Of a stretch of 64,000 nucleotides of DNA, positions 4,412 to 32,975 are shown in pieces. The stretch covers positions 806,001-870,000 of the forward strand of contig NZ_CP019698.1 of NCBI RefSeq assembly GCF_002005145.1. Reading direction: 5' to 3'. The notes below the pieces were generated by a model that did no database searches, was not told the DNA's origin, and saw only the letters and a list, made by a program, of their open reading frames with translations. The position numbers and the translations under genes are program-made. The DNA comes from Desulforamulus ferrireducens (GTDB lineage Bacteria; Bacillota; Desulfotomaculia; Desulfotomaculales; Desulfotomaculaceae). Position 1 is the first letter of the stretch; the number at the start of each line of letters is the position of its first letter.

Positions 4412-4545
4412 ATCTAATTTGTCTTTCTGTAACATAAGATAGCATAGGGCAAAATTGAAGGAACAATCTGAAAAAAATTTAGTGCAGATAAAGGATTTTT
4501 TTGTTTATAACAGAAATCATATTTAAACAATAAAATACTAACGGA

Positions 4546-4747
4546 TGATGGTTGTGGGAGAGACCTTTTAAGAGGCGCCGAAGGAGCAAAACGGTTAACC
4601 TATGCTGCGGTAACCGCTCAAACTCTCAGGCAAAAGGACTGCAACCTGACGTACTCTGGAGAGTTTTCACCTGCCTAGTGGGGTGGAACACCAAAGGGGA
4701 AGCCTCTAAATAAAGAGGTCATCTTTCAGGTTAAAGGGACAGAGTTA
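4546..4747 (+). ncRNA. Tandem glycine riboswitch
   Basis: Two glycine aptamers in a row. The first runs from about 4550 with GGGAGAGACC, GCGCCGAAGGAGCAAA and AACTCTCAGGCAAAAGGACTG. The second has ACTCTGGAGAG, CACCAAAGGGGAAGCC and CTTTCAGGTTAAAGGGACAGAGT. These are the conserved gcvT-motif blocks, and the gene set downstream degrades glycine. The second aptamer's 3' strand runs directly into a terminator hairpin, so glycine binding should permit transcription of the gcv operon. Confidence 0.95.
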
Positions 4748-28987: not shown

Positions 28988-29149
28988 CTCAAAAATCAGT
29001 ATAGCATGGGTTACCTGAGGGGACAAGAAGTCACATTTAGACTCAGTATTCTGTATTATAGCACTTTTCGGCGGTTTTTAACAGTTTTAGGCAGTTCTCC
29101 AACTAATTCCTTGGGACATTGACAAATGGAGCAATATTGAATACAATAT

Positions 29150-29436
29150 CTTTCAGAGTTTATACAGAGTAAATCTATGATCAGGAGAGTAGGCTTGGTT
29201 ACTTGGTACAGGGAGGATGGAGCCTGGGACTGGAAGCTCCGCCCCGAGGACTGGGATCGAAGAACACCTGAGAGTTACCACCGAACGGATTATATCCCAG
29301 TAGGCTGGTACGGTTGACGCCGTTAACGTCTTTGAGTGGAACATTTTGTTCAATCAGGGTGGCACCACGGGAATTATCTCCCGTCCCTGGCAAATGCTTA
29401 AGCATGCCAGTGACGGGAGTTTTTAGTTTTTAATCT
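29150..29436 (+). ncRNA. T-box leader of the hisS-aspS operon
   Basis: The T-box sequence AGGGTGGCACCACGGG lies at 29356-29371 and is followed by a terminator hairpin. Stem I, with the AGAGTAGG-type region near 29190, reaches the specifier loop around GAAGAACACCTGAG. The triplets AAC (29263-29265) and CAC (29265-29267) overlap there; CAC would sense tRNA-His, as expected for hisS. The bulge TGGC predicts a tRNA discriminator base G73, whereas bacterial tRNA-His normally has C73. Uncharged tRNA should stabilise antitermination and turn on both synthetase genes. Confidence 0.88.
29377..29436 (+). terminator. T-box terminator
   Basis: CTCCCGTC...CTGGCA pairs with TGCCAG...GACGGGAG, with an internal GCTTAAGC hairpin, followed by TTTTTAGTTTTT. 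The 5' arm follows the T-box sequence, as in the standard antiterminator/terminator switch. Confidence 0.85.
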
Positions 29437-29459
29437 ATTTTTACAGGAGGGTTATGTTT

Positions 29460-30743
29460 GTGTTAACGACCAGACCCAGAGGTACCAATGATATCTTACC
29501 TGGGGAAGTGGAAAAGTGGCAATATGTTGAGCAGCTTGCCCGGGAAGTGTGCCGGGAATACGGCTATGGGGAGCTGCGTACGCCCATCTTTGAACACACT
29601 GAGCTATTCTCCCGAGGTGTGGGGGAGACCACTGATATAGTTGAAAAAGAGATGTACACCTTCACCGACAGAGGCGAACGCAGTATTACCCTAAGACCTG
29701 AAGGTACCGCTGCCGCCGTGCGGGCCTATTTGGATAACAAATTACAGGCACTACCCCAACCGGTGAAATTATATTACATGGGCCCCATGTTTCGTTACGA
29801 TAGACCCCAGGCCGGACGTTACCGGCAGTTTCACCAGTTTGGTGTGGAGGTTTTTGGTTCCCATAGCCCCTCTATAGATGCAGAAGTCATTGCCATGGCT
29901 ATGGATATTTACCGGCGCATTGGGCTAAGGGACTTGGAACTGCACATTAACAGCGTGGGTTGTCCCAAGTGCCGTCCAGGTCTGCGCCAGCGTCTGCAGG
30001 AACACTTTAAACCCCACCTGGCTAAACTCTGCCCCAATTGCCAGGGAAGGTTTGAGCGGAATCCGCTGCGTATTTTGGATTGCAAAAATGAAAGCTGTCA
30101 GGAACTGGGCCGTCATGCTCCCACCACCTTGGATGTCCTGTGTGAGGAATGTGAAACTCATTTCAATCAAGTTAAAGGTTACCTGGATACAGTGGGTGTC
30201 CCCTATATTGTCAATAACCGTTTGGTCAGGGGTTTGGATTATTATACTCACACCGCCTTTGAAATCATGGCCCAGGATATCGGTGCCCAAAGTTCCATTG
30301 GCGGCGGTGGCCGCTATAACGGCTTGATGGAAGCCTGTGGTGGTCCGGCAACACCGGGTATTGGTTTCGCACTGGGCTTGGAACGAATCTTACTGACGGC
30401 AGAACGCCAGGGTATCACCTTCCCGGTTAGCCGTGGACCGGCGGTTTTTGTGGCCACCGTTGGCAGCGAGCTGGAAAAACAGGCTTTTGCCCTGTTACAA
30501 AGCCTACGTCAACAGGGAATTGCTGCCGAGAAGGATTACCTGGCCCGTAGCCTCAAGGCACAGATGAAGTATGCCGGTAAACTAGGTGCTCGCTGGGTAG
30601 TTATTCTTGGGGAAGAAGAATTGGCCCGGGGGGTAGCTATGGTCAGGGATATGCAAGCCGGCGAACAGCAAGAAGTGGGATTGGCTGAATTGGTAAATTA
30701 TATTAGAAATACTACTAACAATAATCAATGCAGGGGGTTATAA
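29460..30743 (+). CDS. hisS: Histidyl-tRNA synthetase
   Basis: Class II synthetase of about 427 aa. N-terminus [14 protein letters not shown]; motif 2 [20 protein letters not shown]; HisA loop [15 protein letters not shown]; motif 3 [13 protein letters not shown]-terminal anticodon domain after PVFVATVG. Between residues 170 and 220 there is a cysteine-rich insertion (CPKC, CPNC, DCKNESC, CEEC), common in clostridial HisRS. The GTG at 29460 lies eight bases after GGAGGG and fits better than ATG 29454, only two bases away from it. Regulated by the T-box upstream; aspS follows in the same operon. Confidence 0.96.
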
Positions 30744-32784: not shown

Positions 32785-32975
32785 ATCACCCTGCTTTGTG
32801 CGTGAAATACCTGAAGTTTTGAGCCAACAGATGTTGAAAAGGGAGCTTACTTTCTTGCAAGGGAATGTAGACCTTACTTGTATAAGGAAACAGGAAGCTG
32901 CAGAAGGGCACCCACCTGTGTGAGAGCAGGTTCAACAAACTTTGGGTACGGACACGGCACGGTGGGGTTTTCTTT
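32785..32975 (+). ncRNA. ssrS: 6S RNA
   Basis: About 185 nt closing on itself as an interrupted rod: CACC (32787) with GGTG (32961), GTGC and GTG with CAC and GCAC, ACC with GGT, AAGTTTT with AAACTTT, leaving a large internal bubble and an irregular distal stem, as in 6S RNA. It lies between aspS and tcdA, the same place as bsrA in Bacillus subtilis. 6S RNA mimics an open promoter and binds the housekeeping RNA polymerase. Ends in GGTGGGGTTTTC; a stronger terminator follows at 32999. Identification rests on structure and context, not on a profile search. Confidence 0.75.

What the first reader, a model, noticed from the sequence alone, without database searches (positions are those of the whole stretch)
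29150..29436. hisS-aspS T-box whose specifier reads AAC and CAC
The specifier region GAAGAACACCTG contains overlapping Asn (AAC) and His (CAC) triplets, and the antiterminator bulge TGGC predicts pairing with a G73 tRNA. Bacterial tRNA-His has C73, while tRNA-Asn and tRNA-Asp have G73. The leader may therefore sense tRNA-Asn, which would make sense if aspS encodes a non-discriminating enzyme, or respond to two tRNAs. Two-codon T-boxes are known from Clostridium acetobutylicum.
Basis: partly seen in the sequence, partly recalled or inferred. Interest (0 to 1): 0.5.

Follow-up and report, generated by a model that had tools for sequence, protein, structure and literature searches.

The report
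Asparagine-reading switch ahead of hisS-aspS
A known type of RNA switch in front of two tRNA-charging enzyme genes most likely senses uncharged asparagine tRNA; the histidine codon that seems to overlap its reading triplet is, on comparative evidence, probably incidental.

Summary
The T-box is real: RF00230, E 3.9e-21, window 29168-29391, ahead of hisS-aspS. The canonical slot (GAA-N-[SSS]-N-helix) holds AAC (29263-29265); the third base of CAC (29267) is predicted to close the lower Stem I helix. In 95 hisS leaders with a readable slot it is AAC (74) or GAC (21), while a His codon in the overlapping frame is absent from 16, with at least 7 changes on a HisS tree. CAC also arises by context in 13 of 38 other NNC T-boxes read in this genus. 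The three tRNA-Asn genes have G73; the one tRNA-His has C73 with an encoded G-1, so UGGC fits Asn but does not exclude His. AspRS has a non-discriminating-type signature; asnS, two gatA and asnB-type genes are also present. Best reading: a tRNA-Asn-sensing T-box, in a family whose specifier has switched between Asp and Asn, two tRNAs that a non-discriminating AspRS would charge. Dual Asn/His sensing is not supported but not excluded. No binding was tested, and the main comparative T-box papers could not be read.

The parts
29119..29147 (+). promoter-like site TTGACA-17-TACAAT
   Evidence: 11 of 12 consensus matches; consensus match only
29168..29391 (+). T-box leader (RF00230)
   Evidence: 92.8 bits, E 3.9e-21
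29182..29185 (+). CAGG, 5' strand of the lower Stem I helix below the specifier loop
   Evidence: complementary to 29267-29270; a 4-bp match in the same place in 87 of 93 leaders tested
29188..29191 (+). AGTA, 5' side of the specifier loop
   Evidence: Rfam alignment, position
29259..29261 (+). GAA, 3' side of the specifier loop
   Evidence: Rfam alignment, position
29263..29265 (+). specifier triplet AAC (Asn)
   Evidence: register of the Rfam alignments; AAC or GAC in 95 of 95 readable leaders
29265..29267 (+). overlapping CAC (His), judged incidental
   Evidence: its third base is predicted to close the lower helix; His codon absent in 16 of 95 leaders
29267..29270 (+). CCTG, 3' strand of the lower Stem I helix
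29360..29363 (+). TGGC of the T-box bulge, complementary to a GCCA tRNA end (G73)
29378..29419 (+). terminator hairpin followed by TTTTT at 29420-29424
   Evidence: fold -28.3 kcal/mol, z -7.1; not listed by the consensus scan
29454..30743 (+). hisS, histidyl-tRNA synthetase
   Evidence: TIGR00442 529 bits
30728..32551 (+). aspS, bacterial-type aspartyl-tRNA synthetase with RRRDHGG and RPAG; overlaps hisS by 16 bases
   Evidence: TIGR00459 831 bits; best PDB sequence match 4wj3, named Aspartate--tRNA(Asp/Asn) ligase

Best explanation
It is a transcriptional T-box whose specifier is AAC. Uncharged tRNA-Asn (anticodon GUU, 3' end GCCA) pairs with AAC and with UGGC, stabilises the antiterminator and lets RNA polymerase read into hisS-aspS; charged tRNA-Asn leaves the terminator to form. 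The physiological sense is that this AspRS probably also aspartylates tRNA-Asn for GatCAB, so tRNA-Asn charging reports on it; hisS is first in the operon and would be carried along. Shown here: leader, register, predicted helix, comparative conservation, tRNA genes, gene content. Inferred: tRNA binding, termination control, non-discriminating activity, hisS as passenger.
For: The Rfam alignment puts AAC in the slot, A29266 unpaired and C29267 in the helix. In this genome the same register gives the amino acid expected from the next gene for metG, thrS, ileS, pheA, trpX, proB, pheS, valS and ilvD, 9 of 15 next frames scanned; the other 6 do not name one amino acid. The slot is AAC or GAC in 95 of 95 readable leaders, AAC in 9 of 9 same-genus leaders, one of which (L088) has AACCC and so no CAC. 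The counterpart of 29267 pairs in 88 of 93 leaders tested, as G-C in 80 and A-U in 7 of the 87 with a full 4-bp match (the script takes the best-pairing register, so the count leans towards pairing). All 3 tRNA-Asn genes have G73. Read by eye, 17 of 18 T-boxes of this genome pair UGGN with N73 of the tRNA named by the specifier by Watson-Crick rules and one (Trp) by G-U (L019, specifier unclear, and the fragment L020 left out; L012 taken as Ala). Six class members without an asnS hit at E 1e-60 have AAC and no CAC (L194, L199, L200, L202, L205, L209).
Against: The genome has its own AsnRS (505 bits; no T-box match within 25 kb of it) and asnB-type genes, so tRNA-Asn can be charged without AspRS. 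Why hisS should follow tRNA-Asn is unexplained. Ten AAC leaders have C or T where a purine usually follows the triplet. The six leaders without asnS and without CAC are one clade, hence one event; other genomes without asnS over the cut-off read GAC (L201, L249, L119, L141) or AACAC (L256). A CAY codon does overlap in 79 of 95 leaders, more than the 13 of 38 of the other NNC T-boxes, though relatedness alone could do that. The association of GAC with E/D in AspRS in Bacillales-type enzymes (9 of 9 GAC, 3 of 33 AAC) does not survive correction for relatedness (p 0.25 or more). No binding or transcription data.
Confidence: 0.82

Rival explanations
1. Two-codon T-box: the leader reads both tRNA-Asn (AAC) and tRNA-His (CAC), perhaps through alternative foldings as has been suggested for hisS-aspS leaders.
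For: CAC or CAT overlaps the slot in 79 of 95 leaders. PMC4342826 (passage; its reference 99 is Gutierrez-Preciado 2009) reports a suggestion that one hisS-aspS T-box adopts two structures and senses tRNA-His and tRNA-Asp. G-1:C73 pairing in tRNA-His means UGGC does not exclude it.
Against: Third base of CAC is predicted to lie in the helix; no His codon in 16 of 95 leaders, with at least 7 changes on the tree; the A-C context occurs in 13 of 38 other NNC T-boxes read; PMC5313534 (passage) reports that the same review took GACAC to act mainly with tRNA-Asp.
Confidence: 0.08
2. His-only T-box with CAC as specifier.
For: hisS is the first gene; the S. aureus hisS-aspS T-box is called a histidine T-box in PMC7927825 (passage).
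Against: Register, predicted helix and the missing His codons as above; none of the 95 leaders has UGGG, which is weak because of G-1:C73.
Confidence: 0.03
3. Asn plus Glu two-codon leader, as in Clostridium acetobutylicum: GAA (29262-29264) overlaps AAC.
For: The Clostridium T-box has overlapping Asn and Glu positions (PMC4052509, passage). The base before AAC is G in 9 of 9 same-genus leaders and 51 of 74 AAC leaders.
Against: All 3 tRNA-Glu genes have A73, which does not pair with UGGC; the base before AAC is A in 16 of 36 AAC leaders of the class; the two gatA genes lie elsewhere.
Confidence: 0.04

Closest known systems
T-box leaders of hisS-aspS operons with GACAC (bacilli, lactobacilli)
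   Same: same operon, same slot, same overlapping His codon; homologous leaders here also include GACAC
   Different: slot reads AAC (Asn) instead of GAC (Asp); known to me only through passages of PMC5313534 and PMC4342826
Two-codon T-box of the Clostridium acetobutylicum transamidation operon (Saad 2013)
   Same: T-box reading Asn for a tRNA-dependent transamidation route; overlapping triplets at the specifier
   Different: second codon there is Glu, and both tRNAs were reported to bind; here the second codon runs into the helix and is not conserved. Paper not held; seen as a review passage and a title in reference lists
lysK T-box of Bacillus cereus
   Same: a T-box that answers to uncharged tRNA-Asn
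   Different: it answers to tRNA-Lys as well, in a canonical manner, and the Asn response is partial (PMC2916919, abstract and passages)

Membership tests
T-box leader (RF00230) | covariance-model match at the curated score | tested here: inconclusive
   full-length match, E 3.9e-21, 92.8 bits against gathering 93; the hisS leaders of congeners G006 and G004 score 107.6 and 98.7, that of G007 90.2
T-box leader (RF00230) | specifier loop in Stem I (AGUA / GAA, triplet, helix) | tested here: met
T-box leader (RF00230) | UGGN bulge sequence and downstream terminator | tested here: met
T-box leader (RF00230) | tRNA-dependent antitermination | not testable with these tools
   needs transcription assays
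His-specific T-box | CAC in the specifier slot | tested here: not met
   slot is AAC
Two-codon T-box | both triplets free in the loop and both conserved | tested here: not met
   third base of CAC predicted paired; His codon absent in 16 of 95 leaders
Two-codon T-box | binding of two tRNAs | not testable with these tools
   no assay
Non-discriminating bacterial AspRS | H and G at two anticodon-domain positions associated with relaxed specificity (association recalled) | tested here: met
   RRRDHGG and RPAG align with RRRDHGG and RPEG of 4wj3, named tRNA(Asp/Asn) ligase; E. coli 1c0a has RRRDLGS and K there; T. thermophilus 1efw has RRRDLGG and a gap
Non-discriminating bacterial AspRS | aspartylation of tRNA-Asn | not testable with these tools
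   enzyme assay needed

The most novel reading that the evidence does not exclude
In this lineage the T-box works as an asparagine-starvation switch that calls up a non-discriminating AspRS for tRNA-dependent Asn synthesis, with HisRS as a passenger, and over evolution the specifier has changed at least ten times between GAC and AAC because either tRNA reports on the same enzyme.
Probability: 0.4. Interest if true: 0.58.

Novelty: new variant of a known kind. Interest (0 to 1): 0.4.

Why it matters
It gives a comparative answer to which tRNA a hisS-aspS T-box senses when two codons overlap, and shows that the overlapping His codon is dispensable in many homologous leaders. If the Asn reading holds, regulation and relaxed tRNA specificity of AspRS are linked, and Asp/Asn specifier changes become a natural series for testing how T-box specificity evolves.

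Tried and rejected
Absence of asnS as the reason for Asn sensing: rejected. asnS is present. Of 41 class genomes that have a counted leader and were searched for asnS (57 genomes in all, hits at E 1e-60), AAC leaders lack it in 7 of 35 and GAC leaders in 2 of 6; G002 (L103) was not searched. Of 10 genomes outside the class two lack it over the cut-off, both with GAC.

AspRS residue against specifier: raw association in Bacillales-type enzymes, not significant on the tree. UGGC as proof against tRNA-His: withdrawn because of G-1:C73. The minimum-energy fold of the whole leader was not informative (z -1.4, 16 of 200 shuffles as low; it does not show the T-box fold). The MAFFT alignment of the genome's Stem I regions misplaced several rows, so no covariance model of my own was built; slots were read from Rfam alignments and from alignments of leaders.

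Rows and counts: 168 hisS loci were examined: 9 of the genus, 77 from the capped list of 80 of genome contigs, 82 of the 88 further class genomes with a hit (100 genomes drawn; G017, G039, G064, G068, G079 and G100 were not fetched). 102 had a TGGN-like motif upstream. Dropped before counting: L204, L208, L211, L213 (motif judged not a T-box), L128 (false hit 751 bases away), L150 and L180 (slot not readable; L150 may be AAC shifted by one, L180 lacks the 3' half of Stem I). L114-L116 repeat L086-L088 and were left out. The motif search can miss divergent T-boxes, so the 66 loci without it are not counted as lacking one. First tree 82 rows (12 lost to a slip in the reading start, L103 too short), second 95 rows. 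Both are quick trees. The helix count covers 93 of the 95 leaders (L195 and L252 gave no anchor; 87 with four pairs, 3 with three, 3 with two).

The 13 of 38 control was read by eye: 5 of 13 other NNC T-boxes in this genome and 8 of 25 among 30 T-boxes of three congeners (30 of the 53 matches; L294 left out as ambiguous, L283, L286, L289 and L291 not NNC).

Downstream genes that do not name one amino acid: L001, L002, L007, L008, L012, L015; L017 and L019 were not scanned. TrpX (L009) scores below its curated cut-off (279 against 390), and its specifier follows GAA with one base less; in L011 (pheS) with one more.

Literature: ten searches of the held library showed no statement of an Asn-reading hisS-aspS T-box in the listings and passages I saw; Vitreschak 2008, Gutierrez-Preciado 2009, Saad 2012 and Saad 2013 are not held, so prior description is possible. 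Nair 2016 on Bacillus AspRS and tRNA-Asn is recalled, not seen. Supplementary tables of Wels 2008 and of PMC3766115, which list T-box specificities, were not open to me.

Full report
The window lies in a 3.24 Mb single-contig genome whose nearest named hisS relatives in genome contigs are Desulforamulus species. Rfam places a complete T-box at 29168-29391, 62 bases before hisS, which overlaps aspS by 16 bases. A promoter-like site precedes the leader and a stable terminator-type hairpin ends it.

Register. In the Rfam alignment the specifier follows GAA by one base and is followed by one unpaired base and then the lower Stem I helix. Here that is GAA-G-AAC-A-CCUG, with CCUG (29267-29270) complementary to CAGG (29182-29185). 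The genome has 19 full-length T-box matches and one 3' fragment. In the same register the triplets agree with the gene that follows for metG (AUG), thrS (ACC), ileS (AUC), pheA and pheS (UUC), trpX (UGG, one base less after GAA), proB (CCC), valS (GUA) and ilvD (tandem AUC and CUC); these are 9 of 15 next frames scanned, and the other 6 do not name one amino acid. TBDB gives priority to the bases that lie 2-4 from the end of the specifier bulge and also considers frames -1 and +1 (PMC7778990, passages); by that rule AAC is the +0 frame and CAC, two bases on, lies outside all three.

Is the overlapping CAC meaningful? Any specifier ending in C and followed by A-C contains CAC. Among other NNC T-boxes this context occurs in 5 of 13 in this genome and in 8 of 25 read from three congeners. 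Among 95 hisS leaders with a readable slot (42 of the class, 53 from genome contigs), 74 read AAC and 21 GAC; a CAY codon overlaps in 79 and is absent in 16 (AAC followed by CC in 5 and TC in 5; GAC followed by CT in 4, TT in 1 and GC in 1). On a quick HisS tree of the 95 rows presence of CAY needs at least 7 changes and AAC/GAC at least 10. In the genus AAC stands in 9 of 9 leaders, and one (L088, whose apparent twin L116 is Desulforamulus putei) has no CAC. The position after the loop pairs in 88 of 93 leaders tested, in G-C and A-U forms; this count took the best-pairing register and leans that way. The 79 of 95 is higher than 13 of 38; since the leaders are related I do not read selection for CAC into it, but it is the main fact on the side of dual reading.

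tRNAs. ARAGORN found 69 tRNA genes in the stretches around the 69 Rfam places: 3 tRNA-Asn and 3 tRNA-Asp, all G73, and one tRNA-His with C73. The base before the tRNA-His gene is G, so G-1 is encoded. UGGC is therefore what tRNA-Asn or tRNA-Asp would need; for tRNA-His the variable base says little, since TBDB leaves it out for His. tRNA-Asp cannot read AAC by Watson-Crick pairing. UGGN in the 95 leaders is C in 76, T in 17, A in 2 and never G.

Physiology. The AspRS is bacterial-type; its anticodon domain is closest in sequence to 4wj3, named tRNA(Asp/Asn) ligase, and shares with it H in RRRDHGG and G in RPxG, where E. coli and T. thermophilus AspRS differ. That these positions mark relaxed specificity is recalled. 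Of the 82 further class loci, 79 show the stretch: H in 79 of 79, G in 77 of 79. The genome has an AsnRS (430 aa, 505 bits to TIGR00457; best solved relative named asparagine--tRNA ligase), two gatA genes, three asnB-type genes over the family cut-off and no asnA hit. A tRNA-Asn sensor on an AspRS that can charge tRNA-Asn would raise the transamidation route when Asn runs short; the title of Saad 2012 points to a similar arrangement in Clostridium acetobutylicum (seen in a reference list). In 6 class genomes with no asnS hit the leader reads AAC and has no CAC, but they are one clade, and other genomes without asnS read GAC or AACAC. Draft genomes can miss a gene.

Known and new. hisS-aspS T-boxes with GACAC and their ambiguity between Asp and His are in print (passages of PMC5313534 and PMC4342826). 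Two-codon T-boxes are in print for Asn and Glu (PMC4052509, passage). I saw no statement of an Asn-reading hisS-aspS leader in ten library searches, but the main comparative papers are not held. The finding is a known kind of switch with a specifier variant; its interest is in the Asp/Asn switching and in showing that the His codon is dispensable.

Noticed in passing
window 32785-32972 (+): 6S RNA (99.3 bits) downstream of aspS.
   Followed up: no
window 4545-4651 (+): glycine riboswitch aptamer, 65.1 bits.
   Followed up: no
L014:1128-1388 and 1501-1758 (G000:C1:427541-428171): tandem T-boxes reading AUC (Ile) and CUC (Leu) ahead of ilvD.
   Followed up: partly
L007, L008, L017 of G000: Phe-reading (UUC) T-boxes whose next long frame resembles a sodium/solute symporter (L007) or a phenylacetate-CoA ligase (L008), both below the curated cut-offs; L017 has no long frame close by.
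   Followed up: partly
L132, L133, L144: Desulfosporosinus-type hisS leaders whose specifier side lacks much of the usual Stem I sequence in the alignment, with GACAC kept.
   Followed up: no
L180: a Neobacillus MAG hisS leader that seems to have lost the 3' half of Stem I; may be an assembly fault.
   Followed up: no
G000:C1:1200960-1202228: AsnRS of this genus is a short, archaeal-like form (about 500 bits to TIGR00457), while several other class genomes carry a longer form scoring about 640 bits.
   Followed up: partly
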